Origin: Candidatus Gastranaerophilales bacterium
Lineage (GTDB): Bacteria > Cyanobacteriota > Vampirovibrionia > Gastranaerophilales > Gastranaerophilaceae
DNA: 64,000 nucleotides
Assembly (NCBI GenBank): GCA_944325065.1
Contig: CALUYS010000003.1
Location: 62,001 to 126,000 of the forward strand
Direction: 5' to 3'
The position numbers and the translations under genes were made by a program. Within the stretch, counting starts at the first letter, position 1, and every line of letters begins with the position of its first letter. This document shows, piece after piece, positions 6,984 through 59,197 of this stretch. The notes beneath the pieces are model-generated. The model was not told the origin of the DNA and did no database searches. It saw nothing but the letters and a program-made list of their open reading frames with translations.

Positions 6984-7100
6984 AGATTATCTTTTTTGGT
7001 AATGAATAAAAGTGTGTTTCAAAAACATAATTTTATGTAACGAAATTTTAAAGTTTGTAAATTATCATTTACAAAAAAATTCCAAAATAGGAGGAAAGAG

Positions 7101-9317
7101 ATGACAATTAACAAAATGACACTTGCTGCTGCTTTAAGTATTGGTCTTTTAGCAAGTAGCGTATCAATTAGTGCAGCAACAATTGATGATATAACAGGAA
7201 TGAATTTAGCTGCTTGTCCTATATCTGGATGTAAAACTAAAGTAACACCACATAATGCAAAATGTCCAAAATGTATGCAACCTAAGGAAAATTGCAATTG
7301 TAATCCTTGTGAATGTGATCCATGTGGAGCAGCTGCACCTTGTGATCCTTGTGTAAAACCTTGTGATGAGCCGTGTGATCCATGTTCAAAAAAGAAGAAA
7401 AAATGTGATCCTTGTGAATGTGACCCCTGTGGAGCAGCTCCTGCACCATGTGATTGCCCTCCAATGGCAAATTGTCCAGATAATGGTGATCCAACTTGTG
7501 CTGTATGTCCAAATACTTCAAATTTAAGTAATTCACAACGTCAACAAATTTATGCTTATCCATATGCTGTATATGGTGGAAATAATGTAGTTGGTGAATA
7601 TAATAATGGTATTGCAATAAACGAATCACCATATACACCTTGTCCAAGTTGTGCAACAAGTCATATACCTTGTGAAAATGCTTTAAGTGCTTGTACAGAT
7701 GGTGTTCCTATCGCAAGATCTGAATGTGACCCTTGTGGAGCAGCTCCTTGTAATACATGTGATCCTTGTGCTACAAAATCAAATACATCTTTCAGTTGGT
7801 TGAATCCTTTTAATAAAAGTAATAATGATTGCTCAACAGGAAAAGCTTGTCAAATACCAGTAGTAACAAATACATGTAATTCTTGTGGATGTGGAGTCCC
7901 TGTAGTGGAAAATAACTGTGGATGTCCTATACAAATACAAACTCAAACTAGCATGGATGTTTGTAAGAAGACATTAGAACCTTTTACAATGTCTCAAACA
8001 GGTGCTGCAGCTCCATTAATGAGTGTATTCCCTGATGTACCACAAGGATATTGGGCTGGATGCGAAATTAATAGATTAGCTGAAAATGATATAATTGTAG
8101 GCTATCCAGATAGAACATTTAAACCTTCACTTCCTGTATCACGTGCTGAATTAGCTTCAATGACTATTAAAGGGTTCAACTTGAATGATAATATGACTTG
8201 CCCTCAAACTCATTTTAAAGATGTACCTAAAAATCATTGGGCTAACAAGATTATTAATAAAGCAGTTGCTAATGGTCTAATGTGTGGATATCCAAACAAC
8301 ATGTTTAAGCCAAACGAAACTGTTTCTCGTGCTGAAGCATTAACTATCTTAGCAAAAGGTATAAATTGTGAAATGACAGATTGTCAAGCTCGTGAAATTT
8401 TAAGTCAATATTGTGATGGTGATAATGTTCCATCTTGGGCTACTATTGGTGTTGCTAAATCACTTCAAGCAGGTGTATTGGCAAATTCGCCACAACCTAA
8501 AAATATTAATCCAAATAACGATGCAAGTCGTGCTGATATAGCTTCAATGTTACAATCAGTTCGTGTAGCTATCGGTTATGATACTCAAGACAAAGTAACT
8601 TTGAATGATGGATGTCCTTGTGAAAATAGTAAAGCTTATGTTGAGAAAGAAACCACTGTAAAAGTTCCTACACTTCAACTATGCTTTAATGATGAAATAA
8701 GTGCAAAACATGCCAATATTGGCGACAGATTTGCTGCTCGTACTATTGATGCTGTGACAATTGATGGACAATGTTTCCCAGCTGGTTCTGTTGTACACGG
8801 TGTTGTAACTGAAGTTATTCGTCCTACAATGAAATGTAAGGGTGGATTAAAATTAAGCTTTAAAGATATACAAAATGGTAAATGTAAAGTTAATTTACCA
8901 AATCAAATTATAGTAGCTCAAGTTAACTCAATGAAACGTCCTAATTTCTTTGCAAAACTTGTTGAAGCTCCATTTACTTGGACAGGTGGTATTTTAGGTA
9001 ACGTTGGACGTACTGTTGGTGGTGCTATTGTTAATGCAAGTAATGCTGTTGAATCAGTATTTGACGGTGTTGGTGTAGGTACCGGTGAAATATTTCAAGG
9101 TCAACTTGGTGCAGCTGGAAGAAGTTATGCTGATGCTATTAAAAATACAGTTAAGGCACCAATTGATGTAACTCGTACAGCTTTAAGTGGTACTATGGGA
9201 TTATTCGGATATACAGCTGATGAAATTACTTATCTTGTTGATAAAAATGGTATGAGAGTTTCTTCAGTTAATCCAAAAGAACAAGTTACTATTTCTTTTG
9301 GTTGTAACGAACAATAA
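7101..9317 (+). CDS. Cysteine-rich S-layer-homology (SLH) envelope protein
   Basis: A 738-residue exported protein. A signal peptide occupies about residues 1-27 (hydrophobic core LAAALSIGLLAS, cleavage after an A-rich stretch). Residues 36-290 hold about 40 cysteines, including repeated CECDPCGAA units and CDPC tetrads. Two good SLH domains follow (about 308-360 and 370-422, each with FxDVPxxxWA, a GYPxxxFKP turn and VSRAE) and a degenerate third (about 443-490). The C-terminal region (530-738) includes FPAGSVVHGVV, a beta-rich pattern. SLH domains bind pyruvylated cell-wall polymer, so the protein should anchor to the wall beneath or across the outer membrane. The ribosome site GGAGGAAAG is strong, suggesting high expression, and a perfect hairpin terminator follows. 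Confidence 0.9.
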   Translation: MTINKMTLAAALSIGLLASSVSISAATIDDITGMNLAACPISGCKTKVTPHNAKCPKCMQPKENCNCNPCECDPCGAAAPCDPCVKPCDEPCDPCSKKKKKCDPCECDPCGAAPAPCDCPPMANCPDNGDPTCAVCPNTSNLSNSQRQQIYAYPYAVYGGNNVVGEYNNGIAINESPYTPCPSCATSHIPCENALSACTDGVPIARSECDPCGAAPCNTCDPCATKSNTSFSWLNPFNKSNNDCSTGKACQIPVVTNTCNSCGCGVPVVENNCGCPIQIQTQTSMDVCKKTLEPFTMSQTGAAAPLMSVFPDVPQGYWAGCEINRLAENDIIVGYPDRTFKPSLPVSRAELASMTIKGFNLNDNMTCPQTHFKDVPKNHWANKIINKAVANGLMCGYPNNMFKPNETVSRAEALTILAKGINCEMTDCQAREILSQYCDGDNVPSWATIGVAKSLQAGVLANSPQPKNINPNNDASRADIASMLQSVRVAIGYDTQDKVTLNDGCPCENSKAYVEKETTVKVPTLQLCFNDEISAKHANIGDRFAARTIDAVTIDGQCFPAGSVVHGVVTEVIRPTMKCKGGLKLSFKDIQNGKCKVNLPNQIIVAQVNSMKRPNFFAKLVEAPFTWTGGILGNVGRTVGGAIVNASNAVESVFDGVGVGTGEIFQGQLGAAGRSYADAIKNTVKAPIDVTRTALSGTMGLFGYTADEITYLVDKNGMRVSSVNPKEQVTISFGCNEQ

Positions 9318-9341: not shown

Positions 9342-9378
9342 AAAATCCGTACAATAAACAAATTATTGTACGGATTTT
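9342..9378 (+). terminator. Perfect 16-bp hairpin after the SLH gene
   Basis: Arms 9342-9357 and 9363-9378 are exact complements with a five-base loop, followed by a T-rich run. The flanking A and T tracts let it work for both the SLH gene and the convergent gene ending at 9395. Confidence 0.85.
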
Positions 9379-9394
9379 GTTTTTATATTGAATT

Positions 9395-10069
9395 TTATCT
9401 AAAAAGATTCGGAAAATACATCCTTGCAATAGAAAGAAGTCTCATATTAGGAATACTAAAGTCATTGAAGCTCTCAATAAATCCTAATTTGCTATCAACT
9501 TTTTTCATCCAATTATTAAGTTTGCTAATTTCTTCATCAAATTTTTTAATACCTTCTTGAATTTCGGGGTTGTTTTTAATATATTTCACTATCCTATTCC
9601 ACGTGACTCTTGTAAATTTACGAAATTTGTCATATAAGACATCGTCATTAAATTTATTTTCTATTATCGCAGTTGTTTTTTCTTCAACAGCTTTTTGTAT
9701 TTTGTCATCAAGTATTTGGTTTGTTGTTTCATTAACTTTTTGGGTAACTTTATTGTTAATTATTTCATTTGATTTCTCATTGAGTGTTTTAACAACTTTG
9801 TCGTTAATTATTTCGTTGGATTTTTCATCAAGTATTTTGGATATTTTTTCATCCAGTATTTTTTTATAAGCTTTTTTGTTTTTGTGAGAAGAAATAATTG
9901 CAAAAGTTGCAACACCAAGTGCTGCAAGTGCTGTTACACCAAGCACAATTTCGGTTGTGCTTAAAGTTTTTTTATTTTTTTCCTCTTTATTGTCTTCATT
10001 TTTTTTAAAAGAAATAGAATTGTGATTATTAATATTTAAATTTGGGATTTTATTATTCAATAATTTCAT
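9395..10069 (-). CDS. Orphan single-pass membrane protein with five 16-residue repeats
   Basis: A 224-residue protein of unknown family. The N-terminal 38 residues are polar and contain NSISFK (residues 17-22), similar to a leader motif of other orphans here. One membrane helix covers about 41-62. Residues 68-147 are five units of exactly 16 residues with the pattern KxxxIIxxKVxxxxNE, predicted as a long helix or coiled coil. The C-terminus (150-224) is helical and basic/aromatic. The start has an AGGAG site and lies four bases past the stop of the 855-residue gene, so the two form one transcription unit. A structural or scaffold role is only a guess. Confidence 0.7.
   Translation of the reverse strand: MKLLNNKIPNLNINNHNSISFKKNEDNKEEKNKKTLSTTEIVLGVTALAALGVATFAIISSHKNKKAYKKILDEKISKILDEKSNEIINDKVVKTLNEKSNEIINNKVTQKVNETTNQILDDKIQKAVEEKTTAIIENKFNDDVLYDKFRKFTRVTWNRIVKYIKNNPEIQEGIKKFDEEISKLNNWMKKVDSKLGFIESFNDFSIPNMRLLSIARMYFPNLFR
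9629..9868 (-). repeat. Five tandem 48-bp units coding for 16-residue repeats
   Basis: Residues 68-147 of the protein at 9395-10069 divide into five units of 16 residues without gaps. Units 2 and 3 (KSNEIIN then D or N, then KV) are nearly identical, showing expansion by tandem duplication of 48 bp. Confidence 0.8.
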
Positions 10070-10073
10070 TATT

Positions 10074-12641
10074 TTAATCTCCTAATAAATTACTTATACC
10101 ATTAATTAATTTTTTTGCTGCTGTTATCGGTATTTTAGCTATTGTATTTAAATAACCACCATTTTCTTGAACCGTATCACCAATTCTTTGTAATAAATTT
10201 CGATTTCTTCTCGCATCTTCAATTTGAAGAATTTGTTGGTTTTGGATTTGTTTATATTCTTCAACTTTTAATGTATATTCACTTTGAAGTTGCATTAATT
10301 GTAACATCATTTCATCCTGATGTTCGATTCTTTGTTCTTCTATTTGAGCATATGCAATTTCAATCCACTTTTGAGCATTTTTCATTTCTTGTTCAATACG
10401 TCTGTTTTGAGCTTCAATCAATAAAGCTTGTTTTCTTTCTTCACTTGATATTGCAAGTTCTTCAAGGCGTTTATTTATCTTAAAATGTGCATCTTCAATT
10501 TCCAATCTTGCTTTTTCGATACGTTCATTATATTCAAGTTTTTTCTGCTCCAAATTTTCAAGATTTGTCATATGTTTATCCATAATCCTTAGATAATCTC
10601 TTTTTAATTCATCTTGTCGTTCTAAATGTCGATTTCTTGCTTTTTGTTCTTCTTCCTTTAACGCATTTTTCATGGCGGCTTTTTTTTCCTTTAACTTATC
10701 CATACGTTCTTGGTGAGCGCGTTCGGTATATAATCTTTCAAATTCTATTTCTTTATCCAATTGTAATCTTTGTTGTTCTAAACTCATTCCTGAATTAATA
10801 ATTGGAGCTATACGTCTTTTTGCAAATTCTCTTTCTTTTTTTGCCTCATGCATATCTATCATTTTTGTTCTAAAAGTGTGTTTCATAAAAACTTTATTGG
10901 AATTTTCTTCAATATAATCTGAACCTATATTGTAAATTGATGGTAAACCAATATAATCTGAATTTTCGATAACTAAATTTTCTTTAACGAAATTTAATTT
11001 AGGAAATGAAATGTCTTTTGCGTTTTTTATAATTAATGAGCCATTAATATTTACAAGTGACGGAAAGTTTAAATCTTTATGATTTTCTAAAGCAAAATCA
11101 CCATGAATTGTTGTTATATCTTGAAATAATAAATTTAGTTGTTCGCTGCTTCTATTTTCAAATAGTTTATTTGTCTTGGTTAAATCAATCATTAATGTGT
11201 TATTTATAACTTTAAATTCACGATATAAAGCATCTTTTTCTGTTTTTACAGGTATTCTTACCTTGCTACTATTATCTTGTTGAATAATATTTACCTCTTC
11301 TAAGTCTGGCATTTCTACTTTACTTTTTTGGATTATTAAATCTCCTCTAATGACTTTTAGTTTTGGAGTTTTTACATCCGAACCTTCTAAAATAGTTAAA
11401 GAGCCATCTATATTTTCTAATGAAGGTAGTTCGCAATCCTTTTGTTCACTAATTGTTAAATTTCCTTTAATTTCTGTAATGTCTTTAAATACTATATTTA
11501 AGGCTTCTTTATCTAAATTGAGAAATTCACTATGTTTTTCTTCACTCCACTGAGTTGTGTCAAGTATAATTTTATCTTTTTCCTGTTTAAGATTTAAAAA
11601 ATCTTTAATATATTCTGTTTGTAATACATTATACATTGAGTTTTTAAGTTTAAAGACATTTGAGAAAAAAGCAGGATTTGAACCTGTTTTAATGCGATTT
11701 GTTGCAACATCTTCTATATTTTTAATTAAACTTATAGCATTTCTTGTTTCATTTGTATTAAAAGCATTTTTATTAATGTAAGGTATTATTTCATGTATCA
11801 TAATATTCATCATAAAATTAGACAGTTCTCTATCGTCAGCTATTTTACATACTTGCAGCATTTCGTCATTAATTTGTTTTGCATATGTCGTATCATCAAT
11901 ATGTGCAACAAATGGAAGTTTCATATCATTTATATTTTGAACTACATAATTAGCATTTTCTGTTTCAACAAATGCACCTTCTTTTGTTACAACTAAATCG
12001 GTTTCATCTTCAGGGTCGACTAATTTTGAGGTCTTATATAACATCATAAAATCTTGTGAAAAATGAAATGTATTTTTAGATAACTTTTGAATCCTTACAC
12101 CTAAATCATTTAAAATATAAGGTGGCTCAATATTTAAAGGCTCCGAAATAACTTCTGCAACACTATTACTTTTATTATTTGGTCTAACAATTACTGTATA
12201 TGTTTCATTATCAATTGTTTTTACGGAAACTATTTTATCATCACTAAAATTGACTAGATTTGTTATTGAGATGTTAGGAATACTTTTTCTTGTATTTTCA
12301 TCCAATTCATCAAATGCATCCATAAAAGAACGACCATTTGTATTAATATTTTTAAATAATTCTTTTGTTGATTTTGATAATTTATTAACCACTTTTGAAA
12401 AATCCTTAAAAATATCGTGGCGCATGGTTATGAGTCTATTTTCGCCATAGAGTTTAACGCTTTTAACTGGAGCACCAAAACTTATTATATCTCTTTTAAA
12501 ATTCCCTTTATCTATTTTTGGATTCTCAAATTTTAATGGACAAGTTACCTTACCTCTCTTTCCATCACTCAATTGAAGTGCTTTCTTTGGATAAACTTGA
12601 TTTTTATTAAACTTACTAATGTTTTGATTTTGAATTTTCAT
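10074..12641 (-). CDS. Large orphan protein with beta-solenoid-like repeats and long coiled coil
   Basis: An 855-residue protein I do not recognise as a named family. The leader contains IISFGAP (residues 52-58). Residues 60-350 are a globular region without clear similarity. Residues about 375-590 contain two related blocks of short repeats (LFQDITTIHGDF, SLVNINGSLII types), about 22 residues each with GxLxI strands. They resemble receptor-L or BspA-like beta solenoids. Residues about 640-810 are a highly charged E/K/R/Q coiled coil, and the end (ITAAKKLINGISNLLG) is an amphipathic helix. No signal peptide or membrane segment is evident. It is co-transcribed with the repeat protein at 9395-10069. 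Confidence 0.75.
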   Translation of the reverse strand: MKIQNQNISKFNKNQVYPKKALQLSDGKRGKVTCPLKFENPKIDKGNFKRDIISFGAPVKSVKLYGENRLITMRHDIFKDFSKVVNKLSKSTKELFKNINTNGRSFMDAFDELDENTRKSIPNISITNLVNFSDDKIVSVKTIDNETYTVIVRPNNKSNSVAEVISEPLNIEPPYILNDLGVRIQKLSKNTFHFSQDFMMLYKTSKLVDPEDETDLVVTKEGAFVETENANYVVQNINDMKLPFVAHIDDTTYAKQINDEMLQVCKIADDRELSNFMMNIMIHEIIPYINKNAFNTNETRNAISLIKNIEDVATNRIKTGSNPAFFSNVFKLKNSMYNVLQTEYIKDFLNLKQEKDKIILDTTQWSEEKHSEFLNLDKEALNIVFKDITEIKGNLTISEQKDCELPSLENIDGSLTILEGSDVKTPKLKVIRGDLIIQKSKVEMPDLEEVNIIQQDNSSKVRIPVKTEKDALYREFKVINNTLMIDLTKTNKLFENRSSEQLNLLFQDITTIHGDFALENHKDLNFPSLVNINGSLIIKNAKDISFPKLNFVKENLVIENSDYIGLPSIYNIGSDYIEENSNKVFMKHTFRTKMIDMHEAKKEREFAKRRIAPIINSGMSLEQQRLQLDKEIEFERLYTERAHQERMDKLKEKKAAMKNALKEEEQKARNRHLERQDELKRDYLRIMDKHMTNLENLEQKKLEYNERIEKARLEIEDAHFKINKRLEELAISSEERKQALLIEAQNRRIEQEMKNAQKWIEIAYAQIEEQRIEHQDEMMLQLMQLQSEYTLKVEEYKQIQNQQILQIEDARRNRNLLQRIGDTVQENGGYLNTIAKIPITAAKKLINGISNLLGD

Positions 12642-57136: not shown

Positions 57137-59197
57137 ATGTGGCAATATAATAAAAATAAAAAAATTTTCATAAATTTTTGTATCCTAATTCTTACATTAA
57201 CAATGATTTGCAGTAACTATGCTTATGCAAAGTTTTTTTCATTAAAAAAAGAAAAAAATGAAATTAATAATATTTCAAAAAAAATTAAAAAAAATAAATT
57301 TAAATTTTGGAAAAAAAAAGATAACACAAAAAATGAGACACTAGAAAATAAAATTGAACACAATGAAAAAGAAGATGTTAATCCTCTTATGTGGGAATCA
57401 ACTTCAGATATTAATGAGTTTGCTCAAAATGAAAAATCATTACAAAATAATGTTTTTATTAAAGAAATTATAATAAAAGGTAACAATTTAATTGACGTTA
57501 GTGATATAAAAAATACATTAACAGTTAAAGAAGGTGATTATTTTAAACGTGAGGATGTGCAAAATTCATTAAAACAAATTTATGAAATGGGCTATTTTAC
57601 AAATAAAATGAAAGCCATTCCTATAAAATATGACGAGAATAATGTTGTTCTTAATATTGTTGTTGAAGAAAATATACCAGTTGTTAATTTTACAATTGAA
57701 GGAAATAAAAGCATATCAAAAGGTGAGCTTTATGGTGCAATTTCTCAACTTGAAGGAAAACCTCAAAATATAAAAGCTGTTACAAATGCAATAAATAATA
57801 TAGAAAATCTTTATTCAAAAAAAGGCTATATTTTAGCAAGAGTAAAAAATGTATATGATGATCCTGATGGAACTGTAAATTTTGTAATTGACGAGGGGAT
57901 TATCAACTCTATTACTTATGAAGGGAATAATAAAACTAAAGACTATGTTGTAAAAAGAAATATACTAACACAAGAAGGTAGTGTTTATAATGAAAATCAA
58001 CTTCGTGCTGATTTATCTCGTTTATATGCAACCCAAGCTTTTAAAGAAGTTAATCGTTCAATTGAACAAAATGAAAACGGGAAATATGATATTAAAATAA
58101 CTTTGGAAGAACAAAGAAGTGCAACTATTTCACTTGGAGGTGGTATAGATTCACAAACAGGTTTTTTTGGTATGACAGGTCTTGTTGATAACAATCTTTT
58201 TGGTCGTGGGCAAAAACTATCAATAAACTTTATGGCAGGTACGGGATTATTATTATCAGATAGTTCAACATTAGATCGTGCAAATCTTCAAGCTGAGATA
58301 AGTTTTTTAGAGCCTAAATTTTTAGGATCTGATACTTCAATGATGATAAAAGCTTTTGGACGCGACTTTGCATCATATCAAATACCTCTTGCCATTGAAC
58401 GACGTTATGGTGGTGAATTGACATTTTCTCGTAAATTTAAAGAGGCTAAACATACATATGGTTCGATATCTTTAGGTGTTGAAAATGTTGATATTAAAGA
58501 GGGTGATTTTGATAAAATAAAAAGATTATATGCAGGAAAAGGGCTTGATTTTGCAAATAGGGACAAACAATTGGAAGGTGGTTTATTTGCAACTATTTCA
58601 CCATCTATCACTTATGATACACGTGATGATATAATGAATCCACGAAATGGTACTTTGGCTAATATAAGACTTGACCAAGCTTTTGGTATTCTTGATTTTG
58701 AAAAAACACATGCTCGTGCTACAGCAACTATAAAAAAATATTTCCCTTTAATGAAGAAATCTTCACTGTCACTGATGGCTAGAGGTGGAGGAAAAATTTA
58801 TGGAAGTGAAATGCCTGAAGTATTTGGTTATCGTTTGGGCGGTCCTTATACTATTCGTGGTTTCAAAATGAGTGAGGTTGGTACAGGTGAAGCTTTTATG
58901 ATGGCATCAGCTGAAATACAAACACCATTTTTATTTTTCGATAGAATTGAAAAATTACCATTTTTGAAAAATATTAAACTTGCTTTTTTTATGGATGCCG
59001 GTCAGGTATTTAATTCATATACTACAGATTCTATATATAATAGACCACTTAAAGCTATTACAGCTGGTATTGGTGCTCGCATATTTATCCCTGGTCTTGG
59101 TCCTTTGAATGTTGATTGGGGTATACCACTTACAAATGTTGGTGATGGTAATAAACGTGGTGCATTTACTTTTGGTATTGGTGATATGTATTATTAA
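57137..59197 (+). CDS. bamA: Outer membrane assembly protein Omp85/BamA with three POTRA domains
   Basis: A 686-residue outer-membrane protein that inserts beta-barrel proteins. A signal segment is at about 8-28 (IFINFCILILTLTMICSNYA). A charged low-complexity linker follows. Three POTRA domains cover about 108-178, 180-255 and 256-330, then a 16-strand barrel (about 345-686) with the VGGxxRGF-like motif YTIRGFKMSEVG. It ends FGIGDMYY with a terminal aromatic. Three POTRAs instead of five is the cyanobacterial Omp85 form. It proves the cell has an outer membrane. No other bam genes adjoin it. Confidence 0.95.
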   Translation: MWQYNKNKKIFINFCILILTLTMICSNYAYAKFFSLKKEKNEINNISKKIKKNKFKFWKKKDNTKNETLENKIEHNEKEDVNPLMWESTSDINEFAQNEKSLQNNVFIKEIIIKGNNLIDVSDIKNTLTVKEGDYFKREDVQNSLKQIYEMGYFTNKMKAIPIKYDENNVVLNIVVEENIPVVNFTIEGNKSISKGELYGAISQLEGKPQNIKAVTNAINNIENLYSKKGYILARVKNVYDDPDGTVNFVIDEGIINSITYEGNNKTKDYVVKRNILTQEGSVYNENQLRADLSRLYATQAFKEVNRSIEQNENGKYDIKITLEEQRSATISLGGGIDSQTGFFGMTGLVDNNLFGRGQKLSINFMAGTGLLLSDSSTLDRANLQAEISFLEPKFLGSDTSMMIKAFGRDFASYQIPLAIERRYGGELTFSRKFKEAKHTYGSISLGVENVDIKEGDFDKIKRLYAGKGLDFANRDKQLEGGLFATISPSITYDTRDDIMNPRNGTLANIRLDQAFGILDFEKTHARATATIKKYFPLMKKSSLSLMARGGGKIYGSEMPEVFGYRLGGPYTIRGFKMSEVGTGEAFMMASAEIQTPFLFFDRIEKLPFLKNIKLAFFMDAGQVFNSYTTDSIYNRPLKAITAGIGARIFIPGLGPLNVDWGIPLTNVGDGNKRGAFTFGIGDMYY

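What the first reader, a model, noticed from the sequence alone, without database searches (positions are those of the whole stretch)
7101..9317. SLH protein with about 40 cysteines in a repeated CECDPCGAA region
Exported wall-binding proteins are rarely so cysteine-rich. Some 40 cysteines in about 250 residues, arranged as CDPC/CECDPC tandem units, could form a disulfide-linked layer or bind metals. Two SLH domains would fix it to the wall. I know of no described S-layer protein with this build.
Basis: partly seen in the sequence, partly recalled or inferred. Interest (0 to 1): 0.6.

Follow-up and report, generated by a model that had tools for sequence, protein, structure and literature searches.

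The report
Cysteine-rich cell-wall-anchored envelope protein
Nearly all Gastranaerophilales examined (non-photosynthetic relatives of cyanobacteria) carry one gene for an exported protein with a fast-changing cysteine-rich arm, a cell-wall-binding domain and a tail distantly related to part of the type IV secretion machine, which probably works between cell wall and outer membrane rather than as a surface layer.

Summary
In detail: window 7101-9317 (+) encodes a 738-aa exported protein with exactly 40 cysteines in residues 36-290 (15.7%, against about 1% in neighbouring genes). The genome belongs to Candidatus Gastranaerophilales, and the solitary gene is found in almost all genomes of that order. 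The cysteine-rich arm is its most variable part: 9 to 47 cysteines, odd and even counts alike, about 12 positions conserved within the family, plus a repeated (T/C)GAAAP motif about 90 times more frequent than in shuffled sequence. The C-terminal domain is distantly related to the VirB10/TrbI domain of type IV secretion cores, and all three SLH proteins of this genome carry such a tail. The order is diderm (Omp85), encodes CsaB-type pyruvyltransferases and VKOR-DsbA oxidases, and this genome lacks the cyanobacterial OprB porin. Best reading: a periplasmic wall-bound envelope connector whose arm is disulfide-bonded; disulfides, location and outer-membrane contact are inferred. The surface S-layer reading is not supported. 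New variant of a known kind (SLH envelope proteins); function untested.

The parts
7090..7094 (+). Shine-Dalgarno GGAGG, 6 nt before the ATG
   Evidence: sequence read
7101..9317 (+). whole gene, 738 aa, three-SLH cysteine-rich envelope protein
7101..7175 (+). signal peptide (about aa 1-25): MTINKM + hydrophobic core + SISA-A; boundary by eye
   Evidence: sequence; Kyte-Doolittle maximum 1.83; same layout in orthologues
7206..7970 (+). cysteine-rich arm, aa 36-290, 40 Cys
7263..7301 (+). conserved CPxC-x6-CxC mini-cluster (aa 55-67)
   Evidence: Cys kept in 18-20 of 24 orthologues
7296..7334 (+). repeat copy 1, NCNPCECDPCGAA
   Evidence: family D4
7401..7439 (+). repeat copy 2, KCDPCECDPCGAA (90% identical DNA)
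   Evidence: family D4
7707..7745 (+). repeat copy 3, ECDPCGAA (64%)
   Evidence: family D4
7323..7340 (+). (T/C)GAAAP motif, copy 1 (CGAAAP)
7545..7625 (+). conserved QxYAYPxxxYGxNxxVGE segment inside the arm (aa 149-175)
   Evidence: Q149, Y151, Y153, P154 invariant in 24 orthologues
7998..8015 (+). (T/C)GAAAP motif, copy 2 (TGAAAP), just before SLH1
8028..8156 (+). SLH repeat 1
   Evidence: 47.2 bits
8214..8339 (+). SLH repeat 2
   Evidence: 62.4 bits
8415..8543 (+). SLH repeat 3, divergent
   Evidence: 21.5 bits, cut-off 20.8
8655..8897 (+). VirB10/TrbI-like beta domain (aa 519-599)
   Evidence: hhalign to the TrbI-like alignment A4: probability 96%, E 3.8e-9; A4 to ComB10 2bhv E 5.6e-6
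8898..9314 (+). glycine-rich, moderately hydrophobic insert and last strand (aa 600-738), strongly conserved in the order
   Evidence: resemblance to the VirB10 insert not significant
9342..9378 (+). 16-bp inverted repeat with T-rich tails, likely bidirectional terminator

Best explanation
The protein is exported by Sec and stays in the periplasm. Its three SLH repeats bind a pyruvylated polymer on the peptidoglycan. Its C-terminal VirB10-like domain faces, and possibly inserts into or assembles at, the outer membrane, so the protein ties wall and outer membrane together, as OmpM/SlpA porins do elsewhere in Terrabacteria but without a porin barrel. The N-terminal cysteine-rich arm lies on the wall side; the VKOR-DsbA oxidase oxidises it, and it forms intra- and intermolecular disulfides that stiffen or cross-link the envelope, with the number of cysteines free to drift because any neighbour can be a partner. 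Shown: domain order, conservation, presence of the oxidase, the pyruvyltransferase and the outer-membrane machinery in the order, and the distant relation of the C-terminal beta domain to VirB10/TrbI. Inferred: periplasmic location, outer-membrane contact, disulfides, mechanical role.
For: Matches in 58 of 59 related genomes; the full C-terminal domain is near-universal in, and specific to, the order. Three SLH repeats. CsaB-type PF04230 in 38 of 39 genomes; Omp85 in 38 of 39; VKOR in 37 of 39, fused to DsbA with CPxC in the two read in full. C-terminal domain related to TrbI/VirB10, the same for the two other SLH proteins of the genome. No OprB porin in the own genome nor in 33 of 39 genomes searched. 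Conserved Cys pair C595/C735 within the C-terminal domain and an even set of ten near-invariant Cys in the family. SLH tethers in other diderm Terrabacteria: PMC10628300, PMC9388160. VirB10 helices are thought to cross the outer membrane: PMC9371333.
Against: No transmembrane-strength segment in the C-terminal domain (19-residue maximum 1.05). The VirB10 insert itself does not align (probability 3%). The relation to VirB10 is transitive, not direct (one search finds none). OmpA-domain proteins exist in 35 of 39 genomes and could do the tethering. Total Cys is as often odd as even (32 of 62 even). One orthologue has only 12 Cys in a longer arm (L109), so cysteine is not essential everywhere. 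AlphaFold models were useless (pLDDT 27-28).
Confidence: 0.42

Rival explanations
1. Wall-anchored periplasmic protein in which the arm is only a flexible, fast-evolving spacer; the cysteines pair up incidentally and their number has no special meaning. The conserved parts (YAYP segment, SLH, C-terminal domain) do the work.
For: Arm length, Cys count (9-47) and repeat content vary freely, with indels confined to the arm even between the two members of the genus; only 13 of the 40 Cys of the window protein are kept in half or more of 24 relatives; in L109 the arm is Gln/Pro/Thr-rich with TGGAA repeats.
Against: High Cys density (about 5-19%) recurs in nearly all of 62 distinct orthologues, over several families of the order; CxC and CxxC spacings are about twice the shuffled expectation while CC is nearly absent (15 against 129), which looks selected.
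Confidence: 0.25
2. Metal-binding arm: CxxC and CxC clusters bind zinc, copper or another soft metal in the periplasm, for storage or protection.
For: CxxC and CxC spacings dominate; conserved CPxC-x6-CxC at aa 55-67 resembles four-Cys metal sites; a variable number of clusters would suit a storage protein.
Against: No conserved gene neighbour, metal transporter or regulator: the gene stands alone; an oxidising VKOR-DsbA system is present, which would tend to oxidise free thiols; no known metal-binding family matches.
Confidence: 0.17
3. Surface S-layer protein with a disulfide-linked outer layer.
For: SLH repeats and an exported Cys-rich region; SLH genes in Melainabacteria have been read as S-layer capacity (PMC4451040).
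Against: The organism has an outer membrane (Omp85), and SLH domains in diderm Terrabacteria lie in the periplasm (PMC10628300, PMC9388160); the C-terminal domain resembles a periplasmic/outer-membrane assembly domain; low conservation of the arm.
Confidence: 0.08
4. The protein is an assembly platform of a secretion or transport channel built from the order's many TrbI-like proteins, with SLH fixing the channel to the wall.
For: TrbI-like proteins, several with SLH, in 33 of 59 genomes.
Against: No conserved neighbours such as VirB7/VirB9 genes; Cys-rich arm unexplained.
Confidence: 0.08

Closest known systems
OmpM / SlpA / Mep45 SLH-tethered porins of diderm Terrabacteria, including cyanobacterial SLH-OprB (SomA/SomB type)
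   Same: Signal peptide and SLH part that binds the wall; found in diderm Terrabacteria; candidate outer-membrane tether
   Different: No OprB or other porin barrel detected; a VirB10-like domain instead; long Cys-rich arm N-terminal of SLH
VirB10 / TrbI / ComB10 / CagY C-terminal domain of type IV secretion systems
   Same: Distant sequence relation of the beta domain (transitive, profile-profile)
   Different: No inner-membrane anchor by sequence, no conserved secretion-gene neighbours, insert not recognisable as the two-helix antenna
Thermotoga Omp-alpha (SLH, coiled coil, C-terminal helix)
   Same: SLH connector without a porin barrel (PMC9388160)
   Different: No Cys-rich arm or VirB10-like domain described; not compared by sequence here
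Chlamydial OmcA/OmcB cysteine-rich envelope proteins
   Same: Exported Cys-rich proteins; envelope stiffened by disulfides, with a Dsb system as likely oxidant (PMC6752827)
   Different: No sequence relation found; no SLH; strictly an analogy

Membership tests
SLH-domain proteins (PF00395) | SLH repeats above the curated cut-off | tested here: met
   three repeats, 47.2, 62.4 and 21.5 bits, cut-off 20.8
OmpM/SlpA tether family | N-terminal SLH part after a signal peptide | tested here: met
   SLH present, but preceded by a 260-aa Cys-rich arm
OmpM/SlpA tether family | C-terminal outer-membrane porin barrel | tested here: not met
   no porin family on the C-terminal part; no OprB in the genome; the C-terminal domain is VirB10-like
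OmpM/SlpA tether family | holds the outer membrane to peptidoglycan in vivo | not testable with these tools
   needs genetics or biochemistry
VirB10/TrbI (PF03743) | direct match to the family model | tested here: not met
   no PF03743 match to the protein itself; relation only through the TrbI-like alignment A4
VirB10/TrbI (PF03743) | two-helix antenna in the outer membrane | tested here: inconclusive
   insert is Gly-rich with weak hydropathy; tail comparison not significant; structure model failed
VirB10/TrbI (PF03743) | gene next to other type IV secretion genes | tested here: not met
   no conserved neighbours beyond the genus; solitary gene with its own terminator-like repeat
S-layer protein | forms a regular lattice on the cell surface | not testable with these tools
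   needs electron microscopy
Chlamydial OmcA/OmcB | sequence homology | tested here: not met
   no such family in Pfam or NCBIfam scans
Disulfide-cross-linked envelope protein (kind, not family) | exported Cys-rich region plus a disulfide oxidase in the organism | tested here: met
   40 Cys; VKOR in the own genome, VKOR-DsbA fusion in two relatives
Disulfide-cross-linked envelope protein (kind, not family) | actual disulfides between molecules | not testable with these tools
   needs non-reducing gels or mass spectrometry

The most novel reading that the evidence does not exclude
Gastranaerophilales have replaced the SLH-porin tether of their cyanobacterial relatives by a new kind of wall-to-outer-membrane connector: SLH repeats joined to a VirB10-like ring-forming domain, with a cysteine-rich arm that makes a disulfide network in the periplasm of an anaerobe.
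Probability: 0.22. Interest if true: 0.75.

Novelty: new variant of a known kind. Interest (0 to 1): 0.5.

Why it matters
The protein is a near-universal, apparently single-copy signature of an order of gut and environmental bacteria whose envelope is hardly studied. If the connector reading holds, tethering and pore function, joined in one protein in OmpM-type diderms, have come apart here, and a secretion-machine domain has been reused as an envelope part. The disulfide reading would add a cross-linked periplasmic network in presumed anaerobes, comparable in effect to the chlamydial envelope. Both are directly testable on recombinant domains.

Tried and rejected
Viral-contig scans gave only short SLH-type hits or none. 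Direct profile search of the C-terminal domain against PDB found nothing meaningful. A parity test for strictly paired disulfides was negative (32 of 62 even). The idea that TGAAA is a genome-wide sorting motif was dropped: its DNA pattern occurs only four times in this genome, one of them in this gene, and the other proteins seen look unrelated. Conserved operon partners were sought and not found. The Cyanobacteria matches at about 1e-45 probably reflect the SLH part alone; their C-terminal parts were not examined. Literature searches for Cys-rich SLH proteins and for SLH with VirB10 returned no paper.

Full report
OBSERVATION. The ORF at 7101-9317 (+) encodes 738 aa. Residues 36-290 hold exactly 40 cysteines of 255 residues; the whole protein holds 53. 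Other large ORFs in the window average 0.98% Cys, so this is far outside chance. C[DNE]PC occurs 8 times against 0.12 in shuffles. The longer CECDPCGAA unit has three partial copies at irregular spacing. Beyond them lies a conserved domain of about 220 residues with no Pfam match.

WHERE IT COMES FROM. The nearest named relative is a Candidatus Gastranaerophilales MAG (L033). The genome is 1.86 Mb and 98% complete. Matches were found in 58 of 59 related genomes. The full C-terminal domain matches at E below 1e-60 in nearly all genomes of the order, while other Vampirovibrionia give only 1e-5 to 1e-9. The few genomes of the order without it may be assembly gaps. The gene stands alone: neighbours are kept only within the genus, and a 16-bp terminator-like repeat follows it.

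THE ARM. In 62 distinct orthologues (one truncated at its start, with 3 Cys, left out of the ranges) the arm runs from about 170 to 480 residues and from 9 to 47 cysteines. Even the two members of the genus differ by several indels confined to the arm. Total cysteine is even in 32 of 62. In 24 family members about 12 arm positions keep Cys in at least 70%, including a CPxC-x6-CxC cluster, and six conserved Cys lie in the SLH and C-terminal parts, among them C595 and C735. Adjacent CC is nearly absent (15 against 129 expected), while CxC and CxxC are doubled. So the cysteines are placed non-randomly, although their number drifts. The arm also carries (T/C)GAAAP-like motifs, 154 observed against 1.7 expected, kept even in L109, where the Cys are few. 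A conserved QxYAYP segment sits inside the arm.

THE C-TERMINAL DOMAIN. A search of relatives with Pfam TrbI (PF03743) turned up a large set of exported TrbI-like proteins in this order, some with SLH repeats; three matches passed the curated cut-off. An alignment of 14 of them (A4) matches ComB10, CagY and, weakly, VirB10 structures (E 5.6e-6 for ComB10). The domain of the window protein matches A4 over 81 columns with probability 96%, E 3.8e-9. The other two SLH proteins of this genome match A4 too (97% and 89%). The remaining Gly-rich part does not align significantly and has no transmembrane-strength segment. Membership in VirB10/TrbI is therefore not claimed; a distant relation of the beta domain is.

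THE CELL. Omp85 is present in 38 of 39 genomes, and in this window itself within the ORF 57137-59197. CsaB-type pyruvyltransferases are in 38 of 39. VKOR is in 37 of 39, one copy each, and the two read in full are VKOR-DsbA fusions with CPFC or CPYC. OprB porins are absent from this genome and from 33 of 39 genomes searched. OmpA-domain proteins are present in 35 of 39, so other wall-binding proteins exist; some may be MotB.

INTERPRETATION. In diderm Terrabacteria, SLH proteins link wall and outer membrane from the periplasmic side (PMC10628300, PMC9388160). VirB10's helices are proposed to pass through the outer membrane (PMC9371333). Together these suggest a periplasmic wall-bound connector. 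The arm, being N-terminal to the SLH repeats, would lie near the wall, and the oxidase makes disulfides the likelier fate of its thiols. An effect on stiffness is an analogy with the chlamydial envelope (PMC6752827), not a result. Metal binding and a plain spacer remain open.

VERDICT. Real, conserved, and not described in the literature searched (open-access papers only). A new variant of SLH envelope proteins, with a moderately supported mechanism.

Noticed in passing
L141-L170 (relatives' genomes); own genome L003 and L002: The order has many small exported proteins with a TrbI/VirB10-like beta domain and a glycine-zipper-like insert, several fused to SLH repeats: an apparent expansion whose gene context was not examined.
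   Followed up: partly
window 7323-7340 and 7998-8015; L108, L109: A (T/C)GAAAP or TGGAA motif recurs up to nine times in the arm of this protein across the order, more widely kept than the cysteines themselves; meaning unknown.
   Followed up: partly
L069:757-1989, L070:763-1938: VKOR fused to a DsbA-like domain in an order generally regarded as fermentative and anaerobic.
   Followed up: partly
window 57137-59197: BamA/Omp85 homologue lies in the same window.
   Followed up: no
window 10074-12641 (-): 855-aa protein without Pfam match, with repeated units (IKGNLTI/IDGSLTI) and a long charged, probably helical stretch; it and 9395-10069 diverge faster (60-66% identity) than most neighbours within the genus.
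   Followed up: no
G000:C7:9866-10579: A pyruvyltransferase-family reading frame with four stops inside, probably a pseudogene.
   Followed up: no
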